From the NCBI GenBank assembly GCA_019359545.1, contig JAHHHB010000013.1:1-64000 (forward strand): 64,000 nucleotides of DNA, in the 5' to 3' direction. Below the pieces are notes generated by a model. That model was not told the DNA's origin, did not search any database, and saw nothing but the letters and a program-made list of their open reading frames with translations. Below, piece after piece: positions 130 through 29,318 of this stretch. The stretch is from Desmonostoc geniculatum HA4340-LM1. Its GTDB lineage: Bacteria; Cyanobacteriota; Cyanobacteriia; Cyanobacteriales; Nostocaceae. The stretch's first letter is position 1. Every line of letters starts with the position of its first letter. The position numbers and the translations under genes were made by a program.

Positions 130-130
130 T

Positions 131-2861: not shown

Positions 2862-2894
2862 ATTCTGAATTCTGAATTCTGAATTCTGAATTCT
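2862..2894. repeat. Heptamer tandem repeat (ATTCTGA)n
   Basis: Four to five perfect copies of a 7-bp unit, a typical cyanobacterial short tandem repeat. It runs up to and just overlaps the stop codon of the methyltransferase gene. Confidence 0.85.
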
Positions 2895-3687: not shown

Positions 3688-3704
3688 TTTTATTCTCACA
3701 TTTT

Positions 3705-3798
3705 TATTAGTCATTGGTCATTGGTCATTAATTCTTCTCCCTCATCTCCCCATCTCCCCCATCTCCCCATCTCCCCCATCTCCCCATCTCCCCACTCC
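3705..3798. repeat. Intergenic short repeats between NRPS and methyltransferase genes
   Basis: Copies of ATTGGTC and then CCCATCTCC-type units fill the gap. They are the same class of low-complexity DNA found in many gaps of this window and inside the NRPS genes. No promoter or clean terminator hairpin is visible. Confidence 0.7.
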
Positions 3799-6700
3799 CT
3801 ACTCCCGCGCTTTCTCAATACAAGCTTTCAACCGTTCGGCTAAAACCTGGACATGGGGTTCAGCCATAATCGTGATATGGTTGCCTAGTACAAATTGAAT
3901 ATCTACTTCAAAACAAAACTCGCTCCAGCCTAAGGATAAGTCCTGTGAATCCTCAGCAATTAAATGACTATTCGGGTCATCTGGTAAATCTTCGTTAGCC
4001 CGTACAATCGTAATTTTACCCGGATAAATCTGTTTTGATTGATAATTAACTAAACATAAACAGCTAGTTTTATAAGCTTGTACTAGATTTTGTAGCTGCG
4101 TAATTTGAGCATTAGGAGGCAACATATTAGCCATTTTGAAATAGTCTAAAACGTATTTTAGTTGCTCATCCATAGTCAAGTTTTGGAGAGTATCGTAGGA
4201 AACATCGATGTTTTTGTCTAAATAAAGTTTTATTCCTTTACTCACCTCAGCTAACCACCTAACATCATCCCAATCAACGTAATCAGCAAGTAATTGCTTG
4301 TCTTTGTAAGTTGATGGAGATGCATCAATCACGGCCAGTAGAGCAACCTCATGTCCCTGAGCAACCAACTGCTGAGCCATTTCAAAAACGACGTTACCTC
4401 CATAAGAATGTCCTCCCAAAAAGTATGGCCCTTGGGGCTGAACAGCTTGCATTGCTTGAATGTAATGACTCGCTATATCTTCAAGTCGTGAGAGTAGCCT
4501 TAATTCATATAGATTATTTTCAAAACCATATAACGGTTGGTCTACCCCTAAATAACGCCCTAAATAATAGAAGTAGTAAGGGCTGCCAGGAGCGCCGGGA
4601 ACGCAGAAGAAAGGTGAATTTGAACCTTTTGGCTGAATTGGTACCAAACAAGACGAATCAGAGTAATCTGAGTCTTTTTGCACAATTGTCGCCAACTGTT
4701 CGATAGTTGGATTTTGAAAAAGAGTTGTTAAGGGCAAATTTTTACCAAACTGCTCCTGAATTTGAGCCATTAAGTAGGCAGCTAAAAGAGAATGACCGCC
4801 AAGGTCAAAAAAGTTATCTTGTACTCCCACCTTGTTAACCTTAAGAACTTTTGACCAGATTTGTACTAGTTGCAGTTCTAATTGGTTACGGGGTTGGACA
4901 AATTTTTTGAAGTTATCGGTATTAGAAATTGCTCTTAATGCGCGGTGGTCTACTTTCCCGTTAGGAGTTAGTGGTAGAGACTCCAGGATGACAAAAGCCG
5001 ATGGCACCATGTAGAGAGGCAGTTTATTAGTAAGGAACTGGCGCAGTTCCTCTGTTGTGAGTGTTACTCCTTTTTGGGGCACTACGTAGGCAACTAAGCG
5101 TTTCTCACCTGGGGTATCTTCGCGCACAATGACGCAAGATACTTGCACATCTTCATGTTGACTCAGTATTGCTTCGATTTCTCCCAGTTCGATGCGGAAG
5201 CCCCGAATTTTTACTTGGTTATCAATGCGTCCTATGTATTCAATATTGCCATCGGGTAAATAACGAACTAAATCCCCAGTTTTGTATAATTTACTCTCTC
5301 CTGCTGTAAAGGGATTAGGGATAAATTTCTGATTGGTTAACTCGCTTCGGTTGAGATAGCCGCGTGCCAATCCCACACCGCCAATGTGCAATTCTCCCGG
5401 TACACCAACGGGAACTGGTTGTAAATATTGGTCAAAAATGTAAATTTGTGTATTGGCAATTGGGCGACCAATGGGAATAGTTGTGGCTGTGGTTGCTAAG
5501 TCCTCTACCAAATACCAAGAAGAAAACGTGGTATTTTCTGTTGGCCCGTATACATGGAGCAAGTGCTGTGGTGCGCCTTTATCTAACACTTGTTGCACCC
5601 ATCTAGGATCGACCGCTTCACCACCAAATAGCAGATATTTTAAAGAAGCAAATGCTTGCGGTACAACACTGGCTAACTGATTGAATAAAGCTGTGGTTAA
5701 AAATAAGACGCTGACTTTGTAAGAGCGCAGATTTACAGCAAATTCTTTCGGGATGAGCAATATTGATTTGGGGACGATCGCCACCTTGGCGCCGGAAAGC
5801 AATGCTCCCCAAATTTCAAAAGTGGCTGCATCAAAAGCAATATTTGCCGCTTGAGCAACGCAGTCATCGGGGGTTAACTGTACATAGTTGGTGTTTTTGA
5901 CCAATCGATTTACAGCCTGATGAGTAACGACTACGCCTTTGGGTGTGCCTGTAGAACCGGAAGTGTAAATCACATAGGCTAGATTTTCCGCACTGACTAT
6001 ACTGTTGAGATTATCTTGATTTGCTTGGTGAATAACTTGCCAGTCACTATCTAAGCAGACGACATGGGCTTGATGTTGAAAAACAGACTCCAGTAATTTC
6101 TGTTGAGTTAACAGAACTTTTACTTGAGTGTCTGCCAGCATAAATTGTTGGCGTTCTTGGGGATACTCTGGGTCAAGGGGTACGTAAGCCCCACCCGCTT
6201 TGAGAATGCCCAGTAGCCCCACAATCATTAAAGGCGATCGCTCTACACAAATGCCCACTAGCTCCGAGGCTCCCACACCCAAAGAACGCAAGTAATGCGC
6301 CAATTGGTTCGCACGACAATTCAATTCATAGTAGGTGAGTTGTTCGTCTTCATACACAACTGCCACAGCATCCGGTGTTTTCTCAACTTGTTCCTCAAAC
6401 AATTGATGAATACATAAATCATGGGGATAATCTGTTTGAGTATTGTTCCACTCCACCAATAATTGATGACGTTCTGCTGGACTCAATAGTGGTAATTCAA
6501 AAACTCGCCCTCTGGGATTAGCCACAATTGCTTGGAGTAAAGTTTCAAAATGTTGGGCGATGCGAGTAATTGTGGTGGCATCAAATAAATCAGTGTTGTA
6601 ACACCAAGTACCCTCTAAACCACCAGGAGTTTCCCAGAAGTTTACTTCCAAGTCAAACCTAGCTTTGATATCAATTGGCAAAGCTATATTCTGGATATTT

Positions 6701-8016: not shown

Positions 8017-8263
8017 TTGCAAATTACCTTCCCAAACTGTTGTTTAATCAGTTCTAAATTGCGCGATTCACTCTTGGGTTCAAAAAGTCCATCCGCCCCC
8101 CATTTACTAGGATCGAGACTAATTCCCCAGGCGTTTAACCATGAATTAGAGCTAACTTTAGGTAACTTATTCCCTGAAGTGAACGATAGCGTAACTTATC
8201 ATTTCCCACCCAGATTTTTATGCCTAAATCATTGAAATGAGATAAAACTTTAATTGTTTCCAT
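8013..8263 (-). pseudogene. Scrambled remnant: TubC docking start joined out of frame to the 3' end of an unknown gene
   Basis: From ATG at 8263 a 42-codon frame (stop at 8135) begins METIKVLSHFNDLGIKIW and matches the docking domain of the next NRPS (SYLNSLDIKIW, KLRYQS) through KLRYRS, then loses similarity. From about 8200 a second open frame encodes about 57 residues (including SWLNAWGISLDPSKWGADG and SRNLELIKQQFGK). It ends in TGA overlapping the NRPS start as ATGA, the usual sign of translational coupling. This looks like a deletion that fused the front of one gene to the tail of another. I do not recognise the tail. A lost halogenase or a lost extra module is a guess. Confidence 0.55.
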
Positions 8264-8283
8264 CGGAAAAAGGGGGTAAAAGA

Positions 8284-8325
8284 GAGTTATAAGCCCCCGT
8301 GAAAAAGGGGGGTTGGGGAATCTTC
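8284..8325. repeat. G/C-run hairpin downstream of the giant NRPS
   Basis: A CCCCCGTGAAAAAGGGGG-type inverted repeat lies in the gap between the two NRPS genes. It belongs to a common intergenic hairpin family also seen near 59340 and 62380. It could weaken read-through, but no terminal T-run is evident on the transcribed strand. Confidence 0.45.
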
Positions 8326-8396
8326 AAAAGATTAAAACGTTAACCAAAGCGTATTAGAACTACGATCGCAACAAATCTGTTTTGGTAGAAAGTTTT

Positions 8397-11300
8397 TCAT
8401 AATTCTCCTTCTTCGTAATCTTCTTGTGTTTGTGTAATGGATGGTTGACCATCTTGTACGAAACCAACTACTTCAATGATTTGCGCCAAATTAGCTACCG
8501 TGGGGTACTCAAGGAAATTTTGTAAAGACAATTCCACCGGGAAAATATTACGCAAACGAGAGATTACTTGGGTAGCTAGCAGAGAATGTCCGCCAAGTTC
8601 AAAGAAATTGTCATTGATGCCAATGCAATCGCTTCCCAAGACTTCACTCCAGATTTCCACCAGTTGAGCTTCAATCGGTGTGCGAGGTGAAACAAAGCCA
8701 GTGCCAAGATTTCTCGTAGCTGTATCCGGTGCTGGCAGGGCGCGACGATCTACCTTACCATTGGGTGTCAACGGCAGAGCATTGAGCAAGACGAAAGCTT
8801 GCGGCATCATGTAATTTGGTAGCTTTTGTTGGATAAATTCCCGCACCAAAGGTACTAGCTTCTGAACTAACTTGCCGTATAGGGGATTGTTAGTGTAATC
8901 AGTCCAGGATTTGGTAGTCACTGTTGAATTATCCCAGAAAGGAGCTGTTTGTTCTTGATTGCGGCAGAACACCACATCATAAGAACCATCTTGACTACTT
9001 CTCCACCAACTAGTGTGGACAGTGTAACCGAGATGCTGCCCCAACTGATAAAACTCTTCGGGATTGATCCCAACAGTTGGCTGTTGTGCTAGCAATTGTC
9101 GCAGTTGTCCCACTGTCTCCACGGGTGGGGAATTTTCCAACCATTGCCAAGTCTGTAGTGCTTGCTGCACTCGTTGATTAGGTACGCCCCTAATTCCTAA
9201 CAGTTCTGGCTGTTCTTCTTGCAATTGATGTTGAATTTGTGTAAATGAAAGCTTGTCGAGTTGCCAGTTTAACCAAGAAACGGTAGTTGCTTGCACATCA
9301 GCACCGACATGAAGGGCAACATCATAGCGGAATTGGGTTAGCTCATTTTGGGCGTAACCGCGTTTGGGCACAATCTCCACCCAAGTAATTTGGGGAAAAC
9401 GTTGTTTGAGGGCGATGAAAAATCTCGGATCGATGACCAATTCTTCTTCGGCCGCCACACTAGAGTTTACCTGCTGCTGCCATTGCTCAACAGTTCTATC
9501 TTCAGGGGCTTGGAACAACTGCACAGCTGCATGGTATGGTGACAACAGAGGCAAGCTGCGGACATCCCCCACGAATAGAGTACCTCGATCGCCGATCGCC
9601 GCGATCGCTCCTTCAATCACCTGCAACAAATACTCCACACTGGGGAAGTACTGCACTACTGAGTTAATAACTACAGTATCGAATTCTCCTTTGGGGATAA
9701 GAGTAAAGTTATCCGCCATTTGATGCAGCAAGCGCACATTATCTAGACCTAACACCGTTTTACATACCTGTTCAACGTGTTGTAGGGCGGCGCTGGAATA
9801 ATCACATCCCCAATACTCAAGGCACTTGGGAGCAACCCGCGATAGCAATAACCCCGTACCACAACCAATTTCTAATACTCGCTGTGGTGACAGAGATAAA
9901 ATTCGACCCACTGTACTCTCAACCCACTCCTGCATTTCAACAGCTGGGATTGCTTGTTTGGTGTACGAACTATTCCAACCACTAATATTGAACGTGGGGT
10001 CATCTATGGATGTTTGAGGTTGCCCGTATGCTTGCTCATAAAGCATTTGCCAGTCGCTAACATATTCACTCTGCCATTGAGCCAGTTCTTGGGGTAATAC
10101 TTTGTTTTTCAGAGCCGGCACTAAGTAAGCCACCAGTTGTTTATCACCAGTGTTATCAACTCTGGCGACGGCGACACCTGACTGTACCAAGGGATGTTGG
10201 CTCAAAACTCCTTCAATTTCGCCCAATTCGATGCGGAAGCCACGCACCTTAACTTGATTGTCGATGCGTCCCAGGTATTCAATATTACCATCTGGTAAAT
10301 AACGTGCTGAGTCCCCAGTTTTGTAGAGGCGCTCGGAAGAGGCAGAGGGGCAGAGGGGATGGGGGGCAGAGGGGAAAGACTGCTCCCCTGCTCCCCTGCT
10401 CAAGAGCTCAAGAGCTCCCCTACTTCCACCGAAGGGGTTAGGAATGAATTTCTCAGTTGTCAATTCCACACGGTTGAGATAGCCTCTTGCTAGCCCTACA
10501 CCACCAATGTGCAGTTCTCCCGGTACACCAATTGGCACTGGGTTTGCGTGGGAGTCTAAAATGTAGATTTGCGTGTTGGTAATTGGACGACCAATGGTAA
10601 CTTTTTCGTCTTCTTGAGCGCACTTAGCGATAGTGGCACAGACGCTGGCTTCTGTCGGACCATAAGCGTTGAAGAAGTTTCTGCCAGATGACCATTGTTT
10701 CATCAGTTCAACAGTACAAGCTTCGCCGGCGACAATGATTGTTTGCAGGGCTTTGAGTTCTTCAGTTGGCAGGACTGCCAGGGCTGATGGTGGTAGGGTG
10801 ACATGGGTAATGCCATCATCGCGTAATCGTTCAATTAACGGCATACCTGGCATGATTGAGTCTTTTGTTCCCAGGTAAAGTGTTGCCCCTGCTCCCAAAG
10901 TCATCAAGATTTCTGATATGCAAGCATCAAAACTCAAGGAAGCAAACTGGAGAACCCGATTACCCTGATGTACATCAAAAGCCTGAATCTGAGCTTGAGC
11001 GAGGTTGCACAATCCTCGATGCTCAACCATCACCCCTTTAGGTTTACCTGTGGAACCGCTGGTGTAAATGACATTGGCTAGATGAGAAGCCGTGACTTCA
11101 ATAGCTAGGTTATTTTGGTTTTTTTCGGCAATTTCTGCCCAAATTTCATCTAATGACACCAGATGTGCTTGATTTGGGGGTAATTTCTCAACGAGTCGCT
11201 GTTGAGTTACCAGGAGTGAAATTTGAGTGTCTTCTAGCATAAAGCTGAGGCGATTGCTGGGATATTCTGGGTCAAGGGGCACGTAAGCACCACCCGCCTT

Positions 11301-20300: not shown

Positions 20301-23300
20301 CCGTTCTCCTGTCAGTTGGGGACGATTAAGATAGCCACTCGTTACTCCTTGCCCACCAACGTACATCTCGCCTGGAACCCCAATTGGCACTGGCTGTAAG
20401 TTTTTGTCTAGCAGATAAACTTGTAAGTCGGGTATCGGACGACCAATGACACTGGCTGTTCCATTCAAATCGGCTTTGCTCAATGGACGATAAGTGACGT
20501 GTACAGTGGTTTCCGTAATCCCGTACATATTCACTAACTGAGGCATCTGGTCGCCATGACGCTCAAACCAAGGCTGTAAGCTCAACAGTTCTAAGGCTTC
20601 TCCACCAAAAACTACCAGACGCAAGTTCAAATTGTCAGTAATTGCCATCGCCTCTTCGACTTGAATTAACTGCCGGAAGGCGGAAGGTGTTTGGTTGAGA
20701 ATTGTGACTTTTTCTTCACACAGTAACTGATAAAAAGATTCTGGTGAGCGAGTCACTAAATATGGCACTACTATCAGTCGTCCACCATAGAGCAATGCAC
20801 CCCAAATTTCCCAAACTGAGAAGTCGAATGCATAAGAGTGGAACATTGTCCACACATCTTGAGAGTTGAAGTTATACCAAGAGTCTGTGGCTGCAAATAG
20901 ACGAACTACATTTGAGTGGTTGACTAAAACGCCTTTGGGCTGACCTGTAGAACCTGAAGTGTAGATGATGTATGCCAAGTTATCTGATGTAGCGGTGTTT
21001 AGGAGGTTTGAGGAGGTGTTTTGAGCTATTTTTTCCGAGTTGCTGTCTAAGCAGACTACACGCGCCTGCTGTTTTGGTAGCCTTTCAACTAGATGCTGTT
21101 GAGTCAGTAGCACCGAAACTTGAGCATCTTCTAACATAAAACTCAAACGCTCTTGTGGATACTCTGGGTCAAGGGGCACATAAGCACCACCCGCCTTGAG
21201 AATACCTAGTAGTCCCACAATCATCTCCAAGGAGCGCTCAAAACACAACCCCACCAGCACATCAGCGGACACTCCCAATGAGGACAAGTGGTGCGCCAAC
21301 TGGTTAGCGCGACTATTTAACTGTTCATAGGTCAGTTGTTGATTTTCATACACAACTGCCACTGCATTTGGGGTACGCGCTACCTGCTCTTCAAACAAGT
21401 GATGGATACACTGATTCTCAGAATAATCTGCCTGAGTATCATGCCAATCAACTAGTAACTGTTGTTGCTCAAGCGCTGTCAGTAAAGGCAATTGGGAAAT
21501 GGGTTCTTGAGGGTTAGCAATAATCCCCTCAAGTAAAGTCACAAAATGACCAGTCATCCGCTCGATAGTACTGGCATCAAACAAATCAGTATTGTATTCC
21601 CACACACCCACTAGTCCATTAGCAGTGTTTTCCATTGCCAAGCTAAGATCAAACTTGGCAGTTGGGTTGGCTATTGGCAATAAATTGACACTTAATCCAG
21701 TCAACTCTATTTGCGACATGGGCGCATTCTGAAGTGTAAACATCACCTGAAATAGCGGTGTATGGCTGAGATCCCGTTGGGGCTGCAATGCCTCCACTAG
21801 CATTTCAAAAGGCAAATTCTGATGAGCATAGGCATCCATTGCCATGAATCGAACGCGAGTCAGTAATTCCTCAAAGCTGGGATTGCCAGAGACATCAGTA
21901 CGCAAAACTAAAGTGTTGACAAAAAAGCCAATTAACCCTTCTACCTCAGAGCGATCGCGGTTAGCAATTGGCGAACCCACCAAAATGTCTTCTGTACCTG
22001 TGTAGCGGTAAAGTAGGGTATCAAATGCTGCCAACAGCGTCATAAAGAGAGTACAACCTTGCTCTTGGCTAAGTTTTGTCAGCTTTTGAGTTAATTCCTC
22101 AGAAAGTGCAAACTGTCGATATGCCCCGTTGTGAGTCTGTACAGCAGGTCTGGGTCGGTCAGTGGGTAGCGACAATAAGGCTGGTGCGTCTTTTAGTTGT
22201 TGTTGCCAGTAACTGAGTTGGCTTTGCAGTACATCGCCTTGCAACCACTGTCGCTGCCACAGTGCAAAATCTGCATACTGAATTGGTAGTGGCGCTAAGG
22301 GTGAGCTTTGACCTATTGAATAAGCACTGTAAAGCGCTGCTAACTCCTGAACAAACACACCCATTGACCAGCCATCAGAGACAATGTGGTGCATACACAC
22401 ACTTAACATGTGTTCCGTCTCGGATAGCACTACTAATGTCGTCCGGAATAAGGCTTGTGTTGCCAACTCAAAGGGAACAAGTGCTTGTTGTTGTGCTAAT
22501 TCCTGTGCGGCTATTTCTTGTTCGCTTGGAGATAAATGCTGCAAATCTACAATTGATAGTGTCCAAAGAGTTTGTGTTTGAATGATTTGTGAAGCTTTTC
22601 CATCAACTGTGATGAAATTAGTGCGTAAGGCTTCGTGACGAGCAATTATTTCTTCTAAGCTTTGTTCTAAGGCAGCAACATTGAGAGTTCCTGTTAAACG
22701 CAAAGCGATGGGTATGTTGTAGAAGGCACTGTTTGGCTGTAACTGGTCTAAAAACCACAAACGCTGTTGAGCAAATGACAGTGTAATTGTGGCATTCTCT
22801 GGTCGCTTTAAGATTGGTGGTGCAGACAGTTCTGAGTCTTGTTGCTGTAACTGCCCAATTAAATGTGCTAATTCGGCTACTGTTGCTCTGGCAAACAAAT
22901 CACGCAGTGGTAGTTCCACTTTGAAGGTGTTGCGAATGCGTGAAACTACTTGCGTTGCTAGTAGTGAATGTCCGCCTATTTCAAAGAAGTTATCCTCAAT
23001 GCCTACTTGTTCGACTTTCAGCACTTGTGCCCAAATCAGTGCCAGTATTTCTTCAGTGGGTGTGCGCGGTGCAACATATTTGTCTAGCCGTGTGCTGTCT
23101 AACTCTGGTTTTGGTAGGGCGCGGCGGTCTACTTTGCCATTAGATGTTAGCGGTAAGGACTCCAGCAGCACAAAAGTGTTTGGCACCATGTAGCTTGGCA
23201 GTTGGTTGGCCAGGAACTGACGAACTTCGGCTGCTTTTGGAGATTGTCCTACCTCCGGCACAACGTAAGCGACTAAACGTTTGTCGCCTGGTTCATCTTC

Positions 23301-26300
23301 CCGAACCACCACCACGCTTTCCCATATATCTGGGTGTTGCGCCAGTAATGTCTCAATTTCTCCCAACTCAATGCGGAAGCCACGAATCTTAACTTGATTG
23401 TCAATTCGCCCTAAATACTCTAATTCGCCATTCGGCAGATAACGAGCTAAGTCCCCTGTTTTATATAGTCGCGCTTTTGGGTTATCAGCAAAAGGATTAG
23501 AGATAAACCGTTGTGTTGTCAGTTGGGGACGATTGACATAGCCACGGGTTACCCCAGCGCCACCAACGTACATTTCACCTGGAACCCCAATTGGTACTGG
23601 CTTTTGATGTTCATCAAGCACATATACCTGTAAATCGGGAATCGGACGACCAATTACACTTGCACTACCATGCAAATCGGCTTTGCTCAATGGGCGATAA
23701 GTGACGTGTACAGTGGTTTCCGTAATCCCATACATATTCACTAACTGGGGTGACTGGTCGCCATGCTGTTCAAACCAAGGCTGTAAACTCTTAATTTCTA
23801 AGGCTTCTCCGCCGAAAATAACCAGGCGCAACTTCAAATCGCCAAGAGTTTCTTGAGACTGTTCGACTTGAATTAACTGGCGGAAGGCTGAAGGTGTTTG
23901 GTTGAGAATAGTGACTTTCTCTTGAGACAATAACTCATAGAAGAGTTGTGGCGATCGCGTCACGAAATATGGCACTATTACTAGTCGTCCACCATAAAGC
24001 AAAGCACCCCAAATTTCCCAAACAGAGAAATCGAATGCATAAGAGTGGAACATTGTCCACACATCTTCAGATTTAAAGTTATACCAAGAGTTTGTTGCTG
24101 CAAACAAACGAACTACATTTGAGTGGTTGACTAAAACACCCTTGGGCTGACCTGTGGAACCTGAAGTGTAGATGACATATGCCAGGTTACTGGATGTGGC
24201 AGTATTTACAGGGTTTGACTCGCTCTTTTGAGCAATTTTTTCCCAATCGCTGTCTAAGCAGACAAGCTCTGCTGTATGCTCAGGCAACTTTTGAACTAAT
24301 TGCTGCTGAGTAAGTAGCACCCAAACTTGAGCATCTTCTAACATAAAGCTCAAGCGGTCTTGGGGATACTCTGAGTCAAGTGGCAGATATGCACCACCCG
24401 CCTTGAGAATTGCCAACACTCCGACAATCATCTCCAAGGAGCGCTCTACACACAACCCCACCAGCACATCGGCTCCTACACCCAAAGAACGTAAGTAATG
24501 TGCTAATTGATTTGCTTTGGCATTCAACTGCTGGTAAGTCAGTTGTTGATTCTCATACACAAGTGCCACTGCATCTGGGTTACGCTCAACTTGCTCCTCA
24601 AATAATTGATGGATACACTGTTCGGAGGAATAGTCTAAGAGTATATCATTCCACTCAATCAATAACTGCCGTTGCTCAGGTTCTGTAAGCATTGGCAATT
24701 GGGAAATTCGCTCTTTGGGGTTAGCAATAATCCCCTCAAGTAAAGTCACAAAATGACCAGTCATCCGCTCGATAGTACTGGCATCAAACAAATCAGTATT
24801 GTATTCCCACACACCCACTAGTCCAGTGGCGGTGTTCTCCATTGCCAAGGTAATATCAAACTTTGCAGTTTTGCCTTCTATTGGCAAATAACTGACACTT
24901 AACCCACTCAACTCTACTTGTGATATGGGTGCATCATTCTGGAGGGCAAACATCACCTGAAATAAGGGTGTATGACTTAAGTTTCGTTGGGGCTGCAATG
25001 CTTCTACTAGCATTTCAAAGGGTAAATTCTGATGAGCATAGGCATCCATTGCCATGAATCGAACGCGAGTCAGTAATTCCTCAAAGCTGGGATTGCCGGA
25101 GACATCAGTACGCAAAACTAAAGTATTGACAAAAAAGCCAATTAACCCTTCTAATTCAGAGCGATCGCGGTTAGCAATTGGCGAACCCACCAAAATGTCT
25201 TCTGTACCTGTGTAGCGGTAAAGTAAGGTATCAAATGCTGCCAACAGCGTCATAAAGAGCGTACAACCTTGCTCTTGGCTCAGTTTTATCAGCTTACTAG
25301 TTAATTCCTCAGAAAGTGCAAATTGTTGATATGCTCCGGCGAAAGTCTGCACAGCAGGTCTGGGTCGGTCAGTGGGTAGCGACAATAAGGCTGGTGCGTC
25401 TTTTAGTTGTTGTTGCCAGTAACTGAGTTGGCTTTGCAGTACATCCCCTTGCAACCACTGTCGTTGCCAAATGGCGAAATCTGCATACTGAATTGGTAGT
25501 GGCGCTAACGGTGAGCTTTGACCTATTGAATAAGCACTGTAAAGCGCTGCTAACTCCTGAACAAACACACCTATTGACCAGCCATCAGAGACAATGTGAT
25601 GCATACACACACTCAACATGTGTTCTGTCTCGGATAGTACTACTAATGTTGCCCTCACTAATGCCTGTGTTGCCAATTCAAAAGGTTGGATAGCTTGTTG
25701 TTCCCCTAAAAGTTTAGAAGCTATTTCCTGTTCGGTTGTAGATAAATGCTGCAAATCAACAACTGATAATGTCCAATTCCTTTGGGTTTGAATGATTTGT
25801 GTTGGTTGTCCATCAACGGTAATGAAATTAGTGCGTAACGCTTCGTGGCGATGAATAATTTCTTGTAAGCTTTGTTCTAATGCGCCAACTTGCAGAGTTC
25901 CTGCTAAACGCAAACCCATAGGCATGTTGTAGAAGGGACTGTCTGGCTCGAATTGGTCTAAGAACCATAAACGCTGTTGCGCGAATGACAGTGCCAGTTC
26001 TGCATTATTTGCCCTTGGCAAGATGGGTAGTGCAGACAGTTCTGAGTTTTGTTGCTGTAATTGCCCAATGGATTGAGCTAGTTGGGCAACTGTTGTCGCG
26101 GCAAATAATTCACGCAGTGGTAGTTCCACTTTGAAGATGTTGCGAATGCGTGAAACTACTTGTGTTCCTAGTAGCGAATGTCCCCCAAGTTCAAAAAAGT
26201 TATCATAAATGCCCACTTGCTCTACTTTTAGAACTTGCGCCCAAATTTGTGCCAACAGTTCTTCTATTGGACTGCGTGGGGCTACATATTTGTCCGATAA

Positions 26301-29300
26301 TTGGCTGTGTAAATCAGGTGCGGGCAATGCACGGCGGTCTACTTTGCCGTTGGGAGTAAACGGTAGGGCTTCTAGAATGACTATTGCATTTGGCACCATG
26401 TACTCTGGTAACTTTTCCTTCAGGAAGCGGCGCAGTTCGCTAACTTTTGGTGTCTGCTCTTTTTGGGATGCAATGTAGGCGACTAGGCTTTTGTTTCCAG
26501 GAATGTCTTCACGGGCGATGACACACGATGCTTGTACGTGGGGATATTGGCTCAATACTGTTTCGATTTCGCCCAACTCAATACGGAAGCCGCGTATTTT
26601 CACCTGATTATCGATTCGTCCCAGGTATTCGATGTTGCCATCAGGTAAATAACGTACTAAATCCCCTGTTTTGTAAAGGCGCTCGGAAGAGGCAGAGGGG
26701 AAAGACTGCTCCCCTGCTCCCCTGCTCCCCTGCTCCCCTGCTCCCCTGCCTCCACCGAAGGGATTGGGGATGAATTTCTCTTGTGTTAACTCAGGACGGT
26801 TGAGGTAGCCGCGTGCTACCCCTGCACCACCAATGTGCAATTCTCCTGGCACACCTACGGGAACTGGTTGCAGATACTCGTCTAAGATGTAGATTTGTGT
26901 GTTGGCTATGGGGCGACCAATGGGGACAAATTGTCGCTCAATTCCTTGCTTACAAGTCCAAAACGTTGCATCAATACAAGCTTCCGTGGGCCCATAAAGA
27001 TTGTGCAAGTTCACATTCAGATTACTTAACACTTTCTCTTGCAGAGCAACAGGTAAAGCTTCTCCTCCACAGAAAATGTGTTTGAGGGAGTGACAAATTT
27101 CGAGTCCTCCTTGTTCTATGAGTATTTGTAACAAGGATGGTACAAATTGAACAGTAGTGACCTGCTGTTGAGCAATTAACTCCTTCAGGTAAGCAGGGTC
27201 AGCATGGCCTCCTGGTTGAGCTAATAGCAACTGTCCACCTACTAACAAAGGTGCGTAAAATTCCCAAACTGAGGCATCAAAGCTAAAGGGAGTTTTCTGT
27301 AGCACTTTGTCTTCTTCAGTCAGGGGGAATGCTGTTTGCATCCAAGACATATGGTTGCAAAGGTTGCGGTGAGAAAGCATCACTCCCTTAGGCTGACCTG
27401 TCGAACCGGAAGTATAAATCACATAAGCCAAGTTAGTTGCTTGGACAAGTGCGATACCTACGGTAAGCTGCGCTAACGCATTGTCTTCGCAAGACTGAGA
27501 AATCAACTCAGCATCAGTATCTAAACATACAACCTGCGCTTGATGCCGAGGCAACTTTTCAAGAAGTTGCTGTTGTGTTAGCAATACCGCAACTTGAGCA
27601 TCTTCTAACATGAAGCTCAAGCGTTCTTGAGGATACTGAGGGTCAAGCGGCACGTAAGCCCCACCCGCTTTGAGAATCCCCAATAATCCCACCACCATTT
27701 CTAAGGAACGTTCTACACAAATACCAACCAGCACGTCTGGTTCTACACCCAGACTTTGTAAATAGTGCGCCAATCGGTTTGCACGACAGTTTAATTGCTG
27801 GTAAGTCAGTTGTTGATTTTCAAACACCACCGCCACTGCATCTGGGGTACGCTCTACTTGCTCCTCAAACAACTGATGGATACACTTATCCCTTGGATAA
27901 TCAGCCTGAGTATTGTTCCAGTCAACCAATAACTGCTGTTGCTCAACTTCTGTCAGTAGAGGTAATTGCCAAATCTGCTGCTGGGGATTAGCTACAATAG
28001 CTTCAAGCAGTGTCACAAAATGCCCTGCCATGCGCGCGATCGTAGTAGCTTCAAACAAGTCAGTATTGTATTGCCAGCAGAGTTGCAAAACTCCCTGAGC
28101 TTCCATCACCATTAAATTCAGATCTAAGTCTGCACCGCGTTGATGTCCGAGCAAGTATGGCTCCATTTGAAGCACTTGTTCTTGAATGTGCAATGAATTC
28201 TCGGTTGGTTCACACCAACGTTGTCGTTGCCAAGTAAAACTAACTTGACATAAAGGAGAACGACTGGGATCTCGTTGTGGCTGGAGTTGTTCCGCTAACA
28301 GAGAAAAAGGGTAATCTTGATGCTTTTGGGCTTCTCTAATTGTCTTGCTGATTTGAGCCAGAAATTCTGTAAATGTGGCGTTTTCCTGTACAGAAGTTCG
28401 TAAAACCATCAGGTTAGCAAAGTAGCCAACAATATCTTTAAAATCTGCACCCCATCGACCTCTCATCGGGCTTCCTATGAGAATGTCTGTTTGATTGGTG
28501 TAACGGTAAAGTTGGACGTAAAATGCTGCTAACAGAATCTGATAAAGGCTTGTTTCAGAAGCTAGGGCTAGATGCTTCAGTTTTTGAATTAACTGTTCAT
28601 CCAACTTTGAAATATGTGCTGCTCCTTGATAAGTCTTTACGGTTGGACGGGGTTTGTCTGGGAGCAAATTCAAAATTGGCAGTTCGCCAGCTAATTTTTG
28701 TTGCCAGTATTGCCGCAGTTTTTCTCCTCTGGAACCCGATAAAATTTCTGATTGCCAACTGACAAAATCTGCATAAGATTTATTCCCACTCAAATAATTT
28801 GCTGCTGCGTCTGTCTGCTCTTGACTAGCTTGCTCGATTTCATGAGCATACAAAGCTTGAAATTCACTCAGCAGTAAATCAAAAGACCACATATCGCCCG
28901 CAATGTGGTGCATTGTTAGCAAGAGAATGTGTTTTTTTGCTGACTGAGTAAATAAATGAACCCTCAAAACTGAATCTTTTTCTAAGTTAAAAGGGCGGTC
29001 AGTTATCGCAAATATTCTCTCTTGTAAGTAATCTTCGCTCCAATTACTGGCATCTATTACCTCAAGATTAAATTTATGTTTGTGATTAACTTGCTGAATC
29101 GATTTACCTTGATAACTGGTATATGTAGTTCGCAGAATAGGATGGCGTTCAATAATTTTTTCCCAGACACGATTGACAGCAGTAATATTTAAATAAGAAT
29201 TAATTTTTGCAGTAATAAATATATTATAAGCAACGCTATCGGTGGCCATTTGGTAGATAAACCACATTGCTTCTTGACCAGAAGACATTGGTTGACTTGT

Positions 29301-29318
29301 TTGAACAATTCTATTCAT
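8397..29318 (-). CDS. Giant six-module NRPS for an Ahp-cyclodepsipeptide (cyanopeptolin type)
   Basis: The 6973-aa protein has this approximate domain order: C1 1-450, A1 475-990, PCP1 1040; C2 1095, A2 1565, PCP2 2114; C3 2168, A3 2639, PCP3 3199; C4 3270, A4 3730, PCP4 4309; C5 4370, A5 4845, PCP5 5414; C6 5477, A6 5940 with an embedded N-methyltransferase at about 6410-6830 (VLEIGCGTG near 6480), PCP6 6906. Hand-aligned specificity codes: A1 DAWQFGLIDK (Gln), A2 DFWNIGMVHK (Thr), A3 DFWNVGMVHK (Thr), A4 DVENAGVVTK (the code I recall for Ahp modules), A5 DAWTIAAVCK (Phe), A6 DASTIAAVCK (Tyr, N-methylated). C1 resembles starter condensation domains (SSGQEAMWF, HHIAGDMWS), so the Gln is probably acylated. 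PCP3 has LGGDS instead of LGGHS and C4 is divergent (YPLAMLQMGMLFHS). No epimerase domain is seen. Five A domains contain in-frame repeat inserts. The start is an ATG with AGGT upstream. Position in the mature product is inferred by colinearity. Confidence 0.95.
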   Translation of the reverse strand: MNRIVQTSQPMSSGQEAMWFIYQMATDSVAYNIFITAKINSYLNITAVNRVWEKIIERHPILRTTYTSYQGKSIQQVNHKHKFNLEVIDASNWSEDYLQERIFAITDRPFNLEKDSVLRVHLFTQSAKKHILLLTMHHIAGDMWSFDLLLSEFQALYAHEIEQASQEQTDAAANYLSGNKSYADFVSWQSEILSGSRGEKLRQYWQQKLAGELPILNLLPDKPRPTVKTYQGAAHISKLDEQLIQKLKHLALASETSLYQILLAAFYVQLYRYTNQTDILIGSPMRGRWGADFKDIVGYFANLMVLRTSVQENATFTEFLAQISKTIREAQKHQDYPFSLLAEQLQPQRDPSRSPLCQVSFTWQRQRWCEPTENSLHIQEQVLQMEPYLLGHQRGADLDLNLMVMEAQGVLQLCWQYNTDLFEATTIARMAGHFVTLLEAIVANPQQQIWQLPLLTEVEQQQLLVDWNNTQADYPRDKCIHQLFEEQVERTPDAVAVVFENQQLTYQQLNCRANRLAHYLQSLGVEPDVLVGICVERSLEMVVGLLGILKAGGAYVPLDPQYPQERLSFMLEDAQVAVLLTQQQLLEKLPRHQAQVVCLDTDAELISQSCEDNALAQLTVGIALVQATNLAYVIYTSGSTGQPKGVMLSHRNLCNHMSWMQTAFPLTEEDKVLQKTPFSFDASVWEFYAPLLVGGQLLLAQPGGHADPAYLKELIAQQQVTTVQFVPSLLQILIEQGGLEICHSLKHIFCGGEALPVALQEKVLSNLNVNLHNLYGPTEACIDATFWTCKQGIERQFVPIGRPIANTQIYILDEYLQPVPVGVPGELHIGGAGVARGYLNRPELTQEKFIPNPFGGGRGAGEQGSRGAGEQSFPSASSERLYKTGDLVRYLPDGNIEYLGRIDNQVKIRGFRIELGEIETVLSQYPHVQASCVIAREDIPGNKSLVAYIASQKEQTPKVSELRRFLKEKLPEYMVPNAIVILEALPFTPNGKVDRRALPAPDLHSQLSDKYVAPRSPIEELLAQIWAQVLKVEQVGIYDNFFELGGHSLLGTQVVSRIRNIFKVELPLRELFAATTVAQLAQSIGQLQQQNSELSALPILPRANNAELALSFAQQRLWFLDQFEPDSPFYNMPMGLRLAGTLQVGALEQSLQEIIHRHEALRTNFITVDGQPTQIIQTQRNWTLSVVDLQHLSTTEQEIASKLLGEQQAIQPFELATQALVRATLVVLSETEHMLSVCMHHIVSDGWSIGVFVQELAALYSAYSIGQSSPLAPLPIQYADFAIWQRQWLQGDVLQSQLSYWQQQLKDAPALLSLPTDRPRPAVQTFAGAYQQFALSEELTSKLIKLSQEQGCTLFMTLLAAFDTLLYRYTGTEDILVGSPIANRDRSELEGLIGFFVNTLVLRTDVSGNPSFEELLTRVRFMAMDAYAHQNLPFEMLVEALQPQRNLSHTPLFQVMFALQNDAPISQVELSGLSVSYLPIEGKTAKFDITLAMENTATGLVGVWEYNTDLFDASTIERMTGHFVTLLEGIIANPKERISQLPMLTEPEQRQLLIEWNDILLDYSSEQCIHQLFEEQVERNPDAVALVYENQQLTYQQLNAKANQLAHYLRSLGVGADVLVGLCVERSLEMIVGVLAILKAGGAYLPLDSEYPQDRLSFMLEDAQVWVLLTQQQLVQKLPEHTAELVCLDSDWEKIAQKSESNPVNTATSSNLAYVIYTSGSTGQPKGVLVNHSNVVRLFAATNSWYNFKSEDVWTMFHSYAFDFSVWEIWGALLYGGRLVIVPYFVTRSPQLFYELLSQEKVTILNQTPSAFRQLIQVEQSQETLGDLKLRLVIFGGEALEIKSLQPWFEQHGDQSPQLVNMYGITETTVHVTYRPLSKADLHGSASVIGRPIPDLQVYVLDEHQKPVPIGVPGEMYVGGAGVTRGYVNRPQLTTQRFISNPFADNPKARLYKTGDLARYLPNGELEYLGRIDNQVKIRGFRIELGEIETLLAQHPDIWESVVVVREDEPGDKRLVAYVVPEVGQSPKAAEVRQFLANQLPSYMVPNTFVLLESLPLTSNGKVDRRALPKPELDSTRLDKYVAPRTPTEEILALIWAQVLKVEQVGIEDNFFEIGGHSLLATQVVSRIRNTFKVELPLRDLFARATVAELAHLIGQLQQQDSELSAPPILKRPENATITLSFAQQRLWFLDQLQPNSAFYNIPIALRLTGTLNVAALEQSLEEIIARHEALRTNFITVDGKASQIIQTQTLWTLSIVDLQHLSPSEQEIAAQELAQQQALVPFELATQALFRTTLVVLSETEHMLSVCMHHIVSDGWSMGVFVQELAALYSAYSIGQSSPLAPLPIQYADFALWQRQWLQGDVLQSQLSYWQQQLKDAPALLSLPTDRPRPAVQTHNGAYRQFALSEELTQKLTKLSQEQGCTLFMTLLAAFDTLLYRYTGTEDILVGSPIANRDRSEVEGLIGFFVNTLVLRTDVSGNPSFEELLTRVRFMAMDAYAHQNLPFEMLVEALQPQRDLSHTPLFQVMFTLQNAPMSQIELTGLSVNLLPIANPTAKFDLSLAMENTANGLVGVWEYNTDLFDASTIERMTGHFVTLLEGIIANPQEPISQLPLLTALEQQQLLVDWHDTQADYSENQCIHHLFEEQVARTPNAVAVVYENQQLTYEQLNSRANQLAHHLSSLGVSADVLVGLCFERSLEMIVGLLGILKAGGAYVPLDPEYPQERLSFMLEDAQVSVLLTQQHLVERLPKQQARVVCLDSNSEKIAQNTSSNLLNTATSDNLAYIIYTSGSTGQPKGVLVNHSNVVRLFAATDSWYNFNSQDVWTMFHSYAFDFSVWEIWGALLYGGRLIVVPYLVTRSPESFYQLLCEEKVTILNQTPSAFRQLIQVEEAMAITDNLNLRLVVFGGEALELLSLQPWFERHGDQMPQLVNMYGITETTVHVTYRPLSKADLNGTASVIGRPIPDLQVYLLDKNLQPVPIGVPGEMYVGGQGVTSGYLNRPQLTGERFISNPFKRSRGAGELLSRGGEILKSPRLYKTGDLARYLPNGELEYLGRIDNQVKIRGFRIELGEIEALLTQHPAVWESVVMVREDQPGEKRLVAYVVPKTGQSLTPAQLRSFLKQKLPDYMLPTAFVELEALPLTANKKVDRRLLKAPDNTRPELEDAFVAPITPEEKILAAIWAKVLGVEQVGINDNFFALGGDSIRSIQVLSQAKAQGLSFSVQELFQHQTIYELVEELKTQEDEITKSELTQPFSLICEADKQQLPDGVEDAYPLAMLQMGMLFHSEYATDSAIYREISSFHLRTPLNVQVLQVALQDLVNHHAVLRTSFELSKFSIPLQLVHQQVEVPLQVEDWCHLNHSQQEDALTAWFEAEKKRHFDWTHPPLLRFFVHRRTQETFNLTLSCHHAILDGWSVSSMMTEFFSRYLSLLGEEIDYVSPLLSVTFRDYVALEQQAIASSETQTYWREKLNDCTFTKLPDSPSVPTDTNVPKVGLQDITLSLEISEGLKQFAQSAQVPLKSVLLAAHLRVLNLLSGQSDVLTGLIANGRPEQSDGERVLGLFLNTLPFRLQLAGGTWIDLVQQIFATEREFLPHRRYPLAQIQTDLGGESLFETAFNFVHFHVYQQVLELDNLQLLDVKSFEETNFTFVASFSMNPISSEIGLQLEYDVLKLSTHEINRISEYYLKALAAMVNQPQGRYELYSLLSQQEEQQLLVEWNDTQADYPSDKCIHELFEQEVERSPNAAALVFENQQLTYSELNCRANQLAHYLQSLGVKPEVLVGIYLERSLSTIVAFLAVLKAGGAYVPLDPDYPHQRLADISQDSQISLLLTQETLLNSLPVEGVKVIVLDNESGVLTNQSPENPVSEVRPENLACLLYTSGSTGKPKGVMLTHAALVSHSSAISEVFGLTSSDRVLQFASFSFDVAAEEIFPTWYKGGTVVLRPAQMFPDFTSFAQFLAQEKLTAINITPAYWHEWAVAVSKEDATVPQSLRLVAVGGDAVLPETVTIWQQLVGDRVNCLNVYGPTEASVTAIVHDLLDPKSSQTNTVLIGRPIANTQAYILDRHLQPVPIGVIGELHIGGVRLARGYLNRPELTEEKFLPNPFGGSRGAGEQGGRGAEILPNPQSPIPNTSATLSTSPQSPIPNPRLYKTGDLARYLPDGNIECFGRIDNQVKIRGFRIELGEIEAVLNQHIDVQISCVTIREDAAGDKRLVAYVVPYEQKIPATHELRQFLSSKLPLYMVPQAFVMLESLPLTANRKVDRRALPAPDLHHQLKDKYVAPRTPVEEMLALIWAQVLKVEQVGIHDNFFEMGGHSLLATQLVSRIRNTFKVELPLRTLFAAATVEQLARSIEQLQQEDLELTSPPILRRAENATITLSYAQQRLWFLEQLQPNSALYNIPLALRLVGTLNRSALEQSLQEIIARHEALRTNFIAVDGKATQIIREWGTERTSDLLAPTDWQVSVVELQHLPTSEQETAAQELVQQQASLPFDLATQALVRATLLVLNETEHILSVCMHHIVSDEWSVEVFVQEFTALYSAYSQGQLSTLAPLPIQYADFALWQRQWLQGDVLQSQLNYWQQQLKDAPALLPLPTDRARPAVQTFASAHQKFELSLELSQRLAQLSQQQGATLFMTLLAAYDTLLYRYTGQADILVGTPIANRNRSEIEGLIGFFVNTLVMRTDLSQNPSFSDLLGRVREMALQAYAHQDLPFEMLVEVLQPQRNLSHTPLFQVAFLFQNTPTSAVELSGLTISDFPTENVTAKFDLTLAIANTTTGMVGVLEYNTDLFDRTTIARMANHFVTLLEGIVANPQQPISQLPMLTAVEQQQLLFDWNDTRVDYPQDKCIHQLFEEQVERTPDAVAVVFENEQLTYGELNHRANQLAHYLRSLGVGVDVLVGLCVERSLFMLVALLGILKAGAAYVPFDPEYPTERLQFMLEDAQVSVILTQQRILNKLPPNQAQLVCLDEIWSQILENHQHNLTSKVTAVDLANVIYTSGSTGKPKGVMVKHTGLVNLAQAQIQTFGVDSSSRVLQFASLSFDASIWEIIMALAAGATLYLGTKDSLLPGMPLIERLRDYGITHITLPPSALAVLPTEELLGLQTIIVAGEACSPELMKQWSVGRNFFNAYGPTEASVCATVAKCTPEDEKLTIGRPIANTQIYILDEYLQPVPVGVPGELHIGGASLARGYLNRSELTQEKFIQNPFGGSRGAGEQGSRGAGEQGSRGAEEQSLPSAPHLFCPSASSDRLYKTGDLARYLPDGNIEYLGRIDNQVKIRGFRIELGEIETALSQLREVQQAVVVAREDQPNNKRLVAYVVPQQKNGENNYLDNLAQSLRANLKKLLPDYMIPSSFVVLENLPLTPNGKIDHRALPTPELTVLSEADYVMPNTEAEKIIAGIWQKALQVEKVGVHDNFFELGGHSLVATQVISRLQEAFGISLPLRYIFESPTVAQLSELILSELKTGSGLAVPAILPVSRDADIPLSWAQERLWFVNQLSGESDAYTIDFTVRLVGNLNPKALEQAFGSIVQRHEPLRTRFEIKDNKPVQAIAPNMTITLPVVDLQNQPEPEKQAEALATAEASKPFDLANGPVLRVKLWQVATDEYVLLFAIHHIAADGWSMGILIGELSAYYRAMATGTSALLPELPVQYADFSVWQRQWLTNQVLERQLNYWKKQLTGAPPLLELPTDRPRPAIQTFRGGTEQLQLDSLLTSQLKKLSLESGSTLFMTLLAGFVVLMSRYSGQTDLVVGSPIANRNRTEIESLIGFFVNSLALRFDLSQEPTFADLLAQVRRVTQEAYDHQDLPFEMLVEELQVERNLDRNPLTQVVFALQNAPSSPWDLPDVKVEGMPSGLDSVRLDLEVYLWDAPSGLVGFCSYNKDLFDAATIARMMQHFQNLLAAIVDNPQQPVSLLPLLSQQERHQLLVEWNDTQADYPQNQCIHQLFEEQVERTPDAVAVVFENQQLTYHELNCRANQLAHHLRSLGVGADVLVGLCVERSLFMAIGLLGILKAGGAYVPLDPEYPSNRLSFMLEDTQISLLVTQQRLVEKLPPNQAHLVSLDEIWAEIAEKNQNNLAIEVTASHLANVIYTSGSTGKPKGVMVEHRGLCNLAQAQIQAFDVHQGNRVLQFASLSFDACISEILMTLGAGATLYLGTKDSIMPGMPLIERLRDDGITHVTLPPSALAVLPTEELKALQTIIVAGEACTVELMKQWSSGRNFFNAYGPTEASVCATIAKCAQEDEKVTIGRPITNTQIYILDSHANPVPIGVPGELHIGGVGLARGYLNRVELTTEKFIPNPFGGSRGALELLSRGAGEQSFPSAPHPLCPSASSERLYKTGDSARYLPDGNIEYLGRIDNQVKVRGFRIELGEIEGVLSQHPLVQSGVAVARVDNTGDKQLVAYLVPALKNKVLPQELAQWQSEYVSDWQMLYEQAYGQPQTSIDDPTFNISGWNSSYTKQAIPAVEMQEWVESTVGRILSLSPQRVLEIGCGTGLLLSRVAPKCLEYWGCDYSSAALQHVEQVCKTVLGLDNVRLLHQMADNFTLIPKGEFDTVVINSVVQYFPSVEYLLQVIEGAIAAIGDRGTLFVGDVRSLPLLSPYHAAVQLFQAPEDRTVEQWQQQVNSSVAAEEELVIDPRFFIALKQRFPQITWVEIVPKRGYAQNELTQFRYDVALHVGADVQATTVSWLNWQLDKLSFTQIQHQLQEEQPELLGIRGVPNQRVQQALQTWQWLENSPPVETVGQLRQLLAQQPTVGINPEEFYQLGQHLGYTVHTSWWRSSQDGSYDVVFCRNQEQTAPFWDNSTVTTKSWTDYTNNPLYGKLVQKLVPLVREFIQQKLPNYMMPQAFVLLNALPLTPNGKVDRRALPAPDTATRNLGTGFVSPRTPIEAQLVEIWSEVLGSDCIGINDNFFELGGHSLLATQVISRLRNIFPVELSLQNFLEYPTVANLAQIIEVVGFVQDGQPSITQTQEDYEEGEL
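10333..10432. repeat. In-frame low-complexity insert in A6
   Basis: It lies between the PNPF segment and the YKTGD core of the Tyr adenylation domain. It is built from CCCCTGCT and AGAGCTCA-type units plus a purine-rich part and encodes SRGAxE-type residues followed by a Ser/Pro-rich stretch. Domains without an insert (A2, A7) have only about eight residues here. Confidence 0.85.
13591..13708. repeat. In-frame 8-bp minisatellite insert in A5
   Basis: About seven tandem copies of CTCCCCTG occupy the PNPF-to-YKTGD loop of the Phe adenylation domain. Three 8-bp units equal 24 bp, so the protein shows an 8-residue repeat (GEQGSRGA). The insert adds about 35 residues relative to A2. Confidence 0.9.
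16886..17014. repeat. In-frame composite repeat insert in A4
   Basis: Here the same loop of the Ahp-type adenylation domain carries GGGGATT heptamers, a short intergenic-type word (ACTGAGCGTAGCCGAAGTA) and then CCCCTGCT units. Together they add roughly 40 residues rich in Pro, Ser, Asn and Thr. Confidence 0.9.
20224..20280. repeat. In-frame low-complexity insert in A3
   Basis: A short insert of CCCCTGCT and CAAGAGCT units lies in the second Thr adenylation domain at the same loop. It encodes RSRGAGELLSRGGE. The nearly identical A2 domain lacks it, so the insertion happened after those modules diverged or was lost from one copy. Confidence 0.85.
26681..26755. repeat. In-frame low-complexity insert in A1
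   Basis: About five CTCCCCTG copies plus a purine-rich segment lie in the PNPF-to-YKTGD loop of the Gln adenylation domain. They encode GRGAGEQGSRGAGEQ and a Ser-rich tail, adding about 19 residues. Confidence 0.9.

What the first reader, a model, noticed from the sequence alone, without database searches (positions are those of the whole stretch)
3799..29318. Ahp-cyclodepsipeptide assembly line with predicted sequence acyl-Gln-Thr-Thr-Ahp-Phe-N-MeTyr-Ile
Seven adenylation codes read by hand in colinear order give the exact skeleton of a cyanopeptolin: an acylated exocyclic Gln, a ring-closing Thr, a residue before Ahp, Ahp, Phe, an N-methyl aromatic residue, and an aliphatic residue esterified to Thr. 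The embedded N-methyltransferase falls in the right module. Packing six modules into one 6973-residue protein differs from the multi-gene layout I recall for mcn and apd clusters. The combination Thr-Ahp-Phe-MeTyr-Ile may be a new congener.
Basis: partly seen in the sequence, partly recalled or inferred. Interest (0 to 1): 0.75.

Follow-up and report, generated by a model that had tools for sequence, protein, structure and literature searches.

The report
Assembly line for elastase-inhibitor peptide
A Nostoc-type cyanobacterium carries a seven-step enzyme assembly line for a protease-blocking ring peptide; one of its steps appears to have been swapped for a water-removing one, and two uncharacterised neighbour genes track this peptide family so closely that they are good candidates for helping to build its signature residue.

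Summary
In detail: seven colinear NRPS modules with codes Gln-Thr-Thr-Ahp-Phe-Tyr(NMe)-Ile and a thioesterase; the module-4 code is the published Ahp code of Planktothrix oci. One residue must be revised. The condensation domain of module 4 is 24-26% identical to its six sisters, its best solved relatives are McyA (491 bits) and the dehydrating AmbE domain (226), and its donor carrier reads GGDSI. So Thr-3 is probably dehydrated to Abu: acyl-Gln-Thr-Abu-Ahp-Phe-NMeTyr-Ile, the lyngbyastatin/tutuilamide elastase-inhibitor branch. Of 23 classifiable Ahp loci, 2 have this domain: the window's and Symploca sp. SIO1C2. A sister Nostoc keeps the locus but has Leu and an ordinary domain there, so this position changed by recombination. 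Two neighbours, DUF6014 (HEAGH motif) and an SDR without YxxxK, occur in 19 of 19 Ahp genomes and in 2 and 3 of 369 others; two of those are probable Ahp loci cut by contig ends. I propose them as candidates for making Ahp, a step called unanalysed in a 2011 review. No chemistry was done.

The parts
8397..29318 (-). six-module NRPS, 6973 aa: C1-A(Gln)-T / C-A(Thr)-T / C-A(Thr)-T(GGDSI) / C(dehydrating)-A(Ahp)-T / C-A(Phe)-T / C-A(Tyr)-NMT-T
27927..29303 (-). C1, probable starter condensation domain (acylation of Gln)
   Evidence: Pfam match; groups with the first C domains of four other Ahp or Ahp-like synthetases (G361, G240, G118, G215), SH-aLRT 100, in a quick tree of 42 domains that carries a long-branch warning; acyl-CoA use is inferred
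19710..19727 (-). LGGDSI carrier motif of PCP3; the other six carriers read GGHSL
   Evidence: sequence; GGDSx is described as typical of carriers before dehydrating and also epimerising C domains (PMC10880069 passages)
18183..19514 (-). C4, dehydrating condensation domain (CmodAA/DHC class), HHAILDG; proposed Thr-3 to Abu
   Evidence: (McyA 491, AmbE 226 bits), control C3 (105 and 60 bits; 24-26% identity to sister domains)
17199..17606 (-). core of A4, Ahp code DVENAGVVT
9582..9875 (-). integrated N-methyltransferase (best Pfam stretch) in module 6 (Tyr)
3799..8022 (-). TubC_N docking - C - A(Ile) - PCP - thioesterase, termination module
3829..4614 (-). thioesterase, proposed macrolactonisation of Ile onto the Thr-2 hydroxyl
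   Evidence: Pfam PF00975; ring closure by family analogy
2893..3714 (-). free-standing methyltransferase, possible O-methylation
   Evidence: homologues seen at the clusters of six other genomes (G361, G240, G235, G344, G215, G279); not searched genome-wide
1955..2692 (-). SDR-fold protein without the YxxxK catalytic pair (IxxxN); companion of Ahp clusters
652..1821 (-). DUF6014 protein with HEAGH and EEWRxD motifs; companion of Ahp clusters
18159..20171 (-). probable imported block: end of A3, PCP3 and C4 (about aa 3050-3720); its DNA is closest to dehydrating cassettes of other NRPSs, switching to the sister-Nostoc Ahp module at about aa 3700-3750

Best explanation
The cluster makes an Ahp-cyclodepsipeptide of the Abu branch, predicted as acyl-Gln-Thr-Abu-Ahp-Phe-N-MeTyr-Ile with Ile esterified to Thr-2. 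Shown by sequence: module order, A codes, NMT, TE, the dehydrating class of C4 and its GGDSI donor carrier. Inferred: C1 acylates Gln; C4 removes water from carrier-bound Thr-3 before condensing it with the Ahp precursor; the aldehyde-level residue 4 closes on the Phe amide as Ahp; the TE closes the lactone; the product inhibits elastase-like proteases with Abu in the S1 pocket. Compared with a sister Nostoc at the same locus, the residue before Ahp changed by recombination that brought in a carrier plus dehydrating-C block.
For: Codes, with the Ahp code identical to the published OciB-A4 at the nine positions read. C4's best PDB relatives are McyA, 491 bits, then AmbE (7r9x), 226, next 184; the control C3 gives 105 and 60 bits with these two against 401 for its best match. 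A review calls AmbE-C2 a dehydrating domain, places a microcystin C domain in the same CmodAA clade, and says GGDSx carriers precede such domains (PMC10880069 passages). The donor before C4-like domains reads Thr (DFWNIGMVH, in the window DFWNVGMVH) with GGDSI in 9 of 9 domains at 70% identity or more, the window's included (surroundings). Of 7 named Ahp loci 6 could be classed, and only Symploca sp. SIO1C2 shares this C domain (67% over 298 aa); [quoted passage not shown] is the source of the Abu-bearing symplostatins (PMC7291377 passages).
Against: No metabolite data and no assay. Only 2 of 23 classifiable Ahp loci have the domain directly before an Ahp A domain; two more (G118, G253) are cut off at contig ends. 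GGDSx is not specific: it also precedes epimerising domains. The review says the catalytic residues found in AmbE are not conserved in other dehydrating domains, so activity cannot be read from residues. Which McyA domain 8jbr holds is recalled, not from a call. The acyl group is unknown. Whether the window's C4 and the Symploca/G118/G253 ones share one origin is unresolved (AU p 0.57).
Confidence: 0.86

Rival explanations
1. One reading: C4 only condenses, Thr-3 stays intact, and the peptide is acyl-Gln-Thr-Thr-Ahp-Phe-NMeTyr-Ile.
For: A3 plainly reads Thr, and A-domain codes alone give this sequence.
Against: C4 is of the McyA/AmbE class with a GGDSI donor carrier; 21 of 23 classifiable Ahp loci use an ordinary C domain here, so the special one needs a reason.
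Confidence: 0.08
2. C4 is a dual epimerisation/condensation domain, so residue 3 is D-allo-Thr.
For: GGDSx-type carriers are also found before epimerising domains, and the two classes are related (passages).
Against: The solved domains it resembles most are McyA and the dehydrating AmbE domain, well ahead of the rest; in the related Abu peptides lyngbyastatins 8-10 the other units were all assigned the L-form (PMC2810234 passage).
Confidence: 0.04
3. DUF6014 and the SDR are not Ahp-forming; they serve self-protection, export or another shared need of Ahp producers.
For: HEAGH looks like a metallopeptidase motif (non-significant metzincin matches, best E 0.077), and the peptides are protease inhibitors. 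G202 keeps the SDR without an Ahp hit, and in G190 and G391 the SDR lies far from the NRPS.
Against: Ahp formation is the one step common to these clusters for which I know no enzyme (recall); both genes accompany clusters whose other residues differ.
Confidence: 0.5

Closest known systems
oci (Planktothrix), apd (Anabaena), mcn (Microcystis) cyanopeptolin synthetases
   Same: seven modules, Thr at 2, Ahp code DVENAGVVTK at 4, Ile at 7 in oci (PMC2533009 passages); apd and mcn layout mostly recalled
   Different: dehydrating C domain before the Ahp module, acyl-Gln start, six modules in one protein; no halogenase, sulfotransferase or formyl family among the Pfam matches (E up to 0.001) of the cluster ORFs, which the paper reports for one or other of the three
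tutuilamides, lyngbyastatins, symplostatins (Abu-Ahp elastase inhibitors)
   Same: predicted ring Thr-Abu-Ahp-Phe-NMeTyr-Ile; the printed rings have Val, or Ile in a congener (passages)
   Different: the passages I saw name marine cyanobacteria and one freshwater Stigonema as Abu-Ahp sources; the exocyclic part here is a single acyl-Gln. Lyngbyastatin 7 as hexanoyl-Gln is recalled only
G361, a sister Nostoc cluster at the same locus
   Same: DNA identity mostly 90-100% per 60-aa window in C1, the Ahp module, C5, C6 and the NMT module; 9 of 10 flanking ORFs found at 93-100% protein identity
   Different: codes DAENVGAIT-DVQFISQLA-Leu-Ahp-Ile-MeTyr-DALWMGGVF, ordinary C4, extra methyltransferase-like insert in module 5; resembles nostopeptins (recalled)
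Symploca sp. SIO1C2 cluster (L003, G215)
   Same: Thr-Thr(GGDSI)-dehydrating C-Ahp-Phe-MeTyr
   Different: two exocyclic modules before Thr, Val code at the end, split over four proteins

Membership tests
Ahp-cyclodepsipeptide (cyanopeptolin) synthetase | Ahp module with code DVENAGVVT(K) | tested here: met
   residue 517 (K) not read
Ahp-cyclodepsipeptide (cyanopeptolin) synthetase | Thr module two before Ahp and TE for lactone closure | tested here: met
   ring closure itself not tested
Ahp-cyclodepsipeptide (cyanopeptolin) synthetase | N-methyl aromatic module two after Ahp | tested here: met
Ahp-cyclodepsipeptide (cyanopeptolin) synthetase | Ahp residue in the product | not testable with these tools
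   no metabolite data
Abu (dolastatin 13 / lyngbyastatin) branch | Thr-loading module followed by a dehydrating C domain directly before the Ahp A domain | tested here: met
   that this is the genetic mark of the branch is my inference
Abu (dolastatin 13 / lyngbyastatin) branch | Abu in the product and elastase inhibition | not testable with these tools
   no assay
CmodAA / dehydrating condensation domain | closest to characterised dehydrating domains | tested here: met
   AmbE 226 bits against 60 for control C3
CmodAA / dehydrating condensation domain | HHxxxDG motif and upstream GGDSx carrier | tested here: met
   HHAILDG, LGGDSI; rule
CmodAA / dehydrating condensation domain | dehydration activity on Thr | not testable with these tools
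   needs in vitro work
active classical SDR (for window 1955-2692) | catalytic YxxxK | tested here: not met
   the place reads IxxxN in 24 of 26 aligned copies (own and 25 others), LxxxN and VxxxN in one each; Y and K stand there in the aligned 6ihh

The most novel reading that the evidence does not exclude
DUF6014 and the YxxxK-less SDR form, alone or together, a hitherto unnamed Ahp-making pair that acts on the residue loaded by module 4, and are a genetic marker for Ahp-cyclodepsipeptide clusters across cyanobacteria; in the window they serve an Abu-branch synthetase created by natural exchange of a carrier plus dehydrating-C block.
Probability: 0.38. Interest if true: 0.85.

Novelty: new variant of a known kind. 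Interest (0 to 1): 0.6.

Why it matters
The residue before Ahp largely decides which protease is hit. Many Abu peptides inhibit elastase at nanomolar level (1-210 nM quoted), though some are weaker (0.3 and 1.9 uM). The window shows a likely genetic basis for Abu (a dehydrating C domain), gives a genome marker to find such producers, and supplies a natural pair at one locus (G361 with Leu, own with Abu). That bears on the published view that this position changes mainly by point mutation (PMC8097286 and PMC9358669 passages). The co-occurrence of DUF6014 and the odd SDR with the Ahp code turns the question of how Ahp forms ('remains to be analyzed', 2011 review passage) into a two-gene removal test.

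Tried and rejected
Thr-3 retained and epimerised Thr were considered and ranked low (see rivals). A marine-only origin of the Abu type was dropped: the window's genome sits in a genus that contains Nostoc sp. WHI (G413 = L005 by contig position), and an Abu peptide is known from freshwater Stigonema. A single origin of the Abu type was tested and not resolved. Six further genomes with A-domain hits (L099-L104) have code DVETTGAVT; they were left out of the Ahp count for that code, and neither DUF6014 nor the SDR is listed for them. The DUF6014 fold could not be predicted (tool off); profile searches gave only non-significant metzincin or M66 matches, so its chemistry stays open. The rows shown by paper searches include no title on an Abu-Ahp gene cluster; the listings are capped, the library is open-access only, and I read passages, no whole paper. 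DUF6014 is in 0 papers of that library.

Rows dropped before counts: L093 (too little of the C domain on the contig) and L154 (broken frame) could not be classed, leaving 18 of 19 loci and 5 of 6; of the named loci L006 was not classed. In one search, DUF6014 hits G083 (52%), G354 (41%) and G266 (fragment, 63%) were not counted as strong; the truncated G235 copy (86%) was. In one search, SDR hits G090 (60%) and G046 (59%) were not counted as strong. The split between strong and weak was made after seeing the lists. Counting every listed hit, 5 of 369 genomes without the Ahp code have a DUF6014 match and 5 of 369 an SDR match.

Full report
What is there. The window is the first 64 kb of one contig (C173) of a 7.36-Mb genome with 58 condensation-domain matches. 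The genus group also contains G413, whose Ahp locus lies at the contig position of L005, Nostoc sp. WHI, so the organism is a Nostoc-type cyanobacterium. Two NRPS genes, 8397-29318 and 3799-8022 on the minus strand, are followed on the same strand by a methyltransferase (2893-3714), an SDR-fold protein (1955-2692) and a DUF6014 protein (652-1821). Domain scans give seven C-A-PCP modules, an N-methyltransferase in module 6, a TubC_N docking domain at the start of the small protein and a thioesterase at its end. The codes, aligned on the window's own Phe domain, read DAWQFGLID, DFWNIGMVH, DFWNVGMVH, DVENAGVVT, DAWTIAAVC, DASTIAAVC, DAFFLGVTF. The Ahp, Thr and Ile codes are printed for oci in PMC2533009 (passage); the others are named from recall.

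The unusual domain. C4, which takes residue 3 onto the Ahp module, is 24-26% identical to the six other C domains of the cluster, while C2, C3, C5, C6 and C7 share 49-87% with one another and C1 34-39% with them. Against solved structures its best matches are McyA (8jbr, 491 bits) and AmbE (7r9x, 226 bits), the next being 184. The ordinary C3 of the same protein, run as a control, scores 401 with Txo2 but 105 with McyA and 60 with AmbE. A review (PMC10880069, passages) describes AmbE-C2 as a dehydrating C domain, groups such domains as CmodAA/DHC together with one from microcystin synthesis, and says their donor carriers read GGDSx; carriers before epimerising domains are of the same type, so GGDSx alone is not specific. 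PCP3 reads LGGDSI; the other six carriers read GGHSL. So residue 3 is loaded as Thr and most likely dehydrated to Abu.

How common this is. An Ahp A-domain segment was sought in 388 genomes of the order: 25 match, of which 19 have code DVENAGVVT and 6 DVETTGAVT. In the genus, 7 of 53 genomes match. Of 19 loci, 18 could be classed: 2 have the dehydrating domain (the window and G215, Symploca sp. SIO1C2) and 16 an ordinary one; of 6 further loci, 5 could be classed and those 5 are ordinary. G118 and G253 carry the same kind of domain at 72% identity after a Thr module with GGDSI, but the contig ends right behind it, and neither gave an Ahp A-domain hit; G118 reads Ile-Gln-Thr-Thr before the break. 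The Symploca cluster ends Thr-Thr(GGDSI)-Ahp-Phe-MeTyr-Val, the ring of tutuilamide A with Thr loaded where Abu stands (PMC8954713 passage). In one search nine C4-like domains have 70% identity or more, the window's included; in 9 of 9 the domain before is a Thr module with GGDSI. The four in G139 (two), G372 and G387 are followed by other codes or a contig end, and G327 by a Pro-like one, so they are not Ahp modules as far as seen.

A natural swap. G361, a sister genome, has the same locus: 9 of 10 flanking ORFs tested are there at 93-100% protein identity; the GNAT gene (37595-38167) had no match in the fetched stretch. Its synthetase matches the window's at mostly 90-100% DNA identity per 60-aa window through C1, the Ahp module, C5, C6 and the NMT module, with dips at aa 4081 and 6301, and falls apart in A1 (about aa 540-840), in about aa 1260-3740 and in A5 (about aa 4860-5180). 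Within the second block, the stretch from the end of A3 to the C4-A4 linker (about aa 3050-3700) has its best DNA match, at 76-90%, in dehydrating cassettes of other NRPSs (G372, G387, G139, G118, G253); from about aa 3700-3750 the best match is G361 again. G361 has the Leu code and an ordinary C domain at this position. Two papers hold that this position changes mainly by point mutation, the second by citing a reference that I take to be the first (passages); this locus is an exception. A tree of 31 dehydrating-type domains puts the window's C4 nearest G139a (support 95/76) and the Symploca, G118 and G253 ones in a clade of their own (100/100), but one shared origin is not rejected (AU p 0.57).

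The start. C1 groups with the first C domains of G361, G240, G118 and G215, apart from the elongating ones (quick tree of 42 domains; the tool warns of long branches). This fits a starter domain. No acyl ligase other than the NRPS A domains appeared among the window ORFs that I scanned with Pfam (23 ORFs, none beyond 57590; small and overlapping ORFs left out). The acyl group is unknown; masses for three choices are.

The companions. DUF6014 and the SDR were first sought in 25 genomes chosen for Ahp or Abu-type loci and found in 25 of 25 each. The fairer test is the 388 order genomes: strong DUF6014 matches are in 19 of 19 DVENAGVVT genomes and 2 of 369 others, namely G118 and G253; strong SDR matches are in 19 of 19 and 3 of 369, the third being G202. 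With the weak hits included, the others are 5 of 369 each. Fisher p for the strong hits is about 3e-30 and 2e-29, but the genomes are related, so this is not a true probability; the 25 genomes fall in 10 genera. In a phylum sample of 166 genomes, partly the same ones, the 4 genomes with the Ahp code have DUF6014 and the two DVETTGAVT ones do not; G083 (52%) has DUF6014 without an Ahp hit. Counting the dehydrating C positions of G118 and G253 as stand-ins, DUF6014 lies within 20 kb of the Ahp domain at 18 of 27 loci and the SDR within 25 kb at 17 of 27. At 7 loci each they are on another contig; in G126 and G190 DUF6014 is 47-48 kb away, and in G126, G190 and G391 the SDR is 55 kb, 226 kb and 2.2 Mb away.

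What the companions look like. The SDR has lost the catalytic pair: the YxxxK place reads IxxxN in 24 of 26 aligned copies, with L or V for I in the other two and N in 26 of 26. DUF6014 has HEAGH in the window's copy and in the other intact cluster copies aligned, with an EEWRxD stretch 23 residues on; the truncated G235 copy has YEAGH, and of three distant relatives two have HDxGH and one HEAGH. Not every copy was fetched: the second copies in G190 and G408 and the stop-bearing one in G389 are not in the alignment. It has no significant relative among solved structures. The sequence suggests a metal site but not a reaction. That they make Ahp is inference: Ahp formation is the one shared step without an enzyme that I know of, and a 2011 review calls it still to be analysed (PMC3252866 passage). 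Work outside the open-access library may have advanced this.

Verdict. Ordinary in kind as an Ahp synthetase, but a well-marked variant with a genetic reading for Abu, a recombination pair that shows how it may have arisen, and two companion genes worth testing. Everything here is sequence evidence; no product, activity or structure was observed.

Noticed in passing
window 78-308: Transposase-like ORF piece (VSIDGKTLKGSYDREQ; likeness recalled) at the contig start, so the 3' side of the cluster abuts a contig end.
   Followed up: no
L136 (G361), module 5: An extra insert of about 395 aa with a methyltransferase-like motif (VVEIGTGKDAILSRFC), absent in the window's module 5.
   Followed up: partly
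L099-L104: Six genomes carry a related A domain with code DVETTGAVT and GGNSL carriers, without listed DUF6014 or SDR matches; the product is unknown to me.
   Followed up: no
L185 (own genome C159:117891-119012): A DUF6014 paralogue at 43% identity with HDAGH, on another contig than the Ahp cluster; G361 has a second copy at 44%.
   Followed up: no
L144 (G235), L154 (G389): Ahp loci with short or broken NRPS frames; their DUF6014 copies are truncated or hold a stop, as if the cluster and its companion decay together.
   Followed up: no
L004 (Coleofasciculus MAG): The module before Ahp reads DVESIGSVS, a DVE-type code, next to the Ahp code DVENAGVVT.
   Followed up: no
window 50769-52835: Protein kinase domain fused to WD40 repeats.
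   Followed up: no
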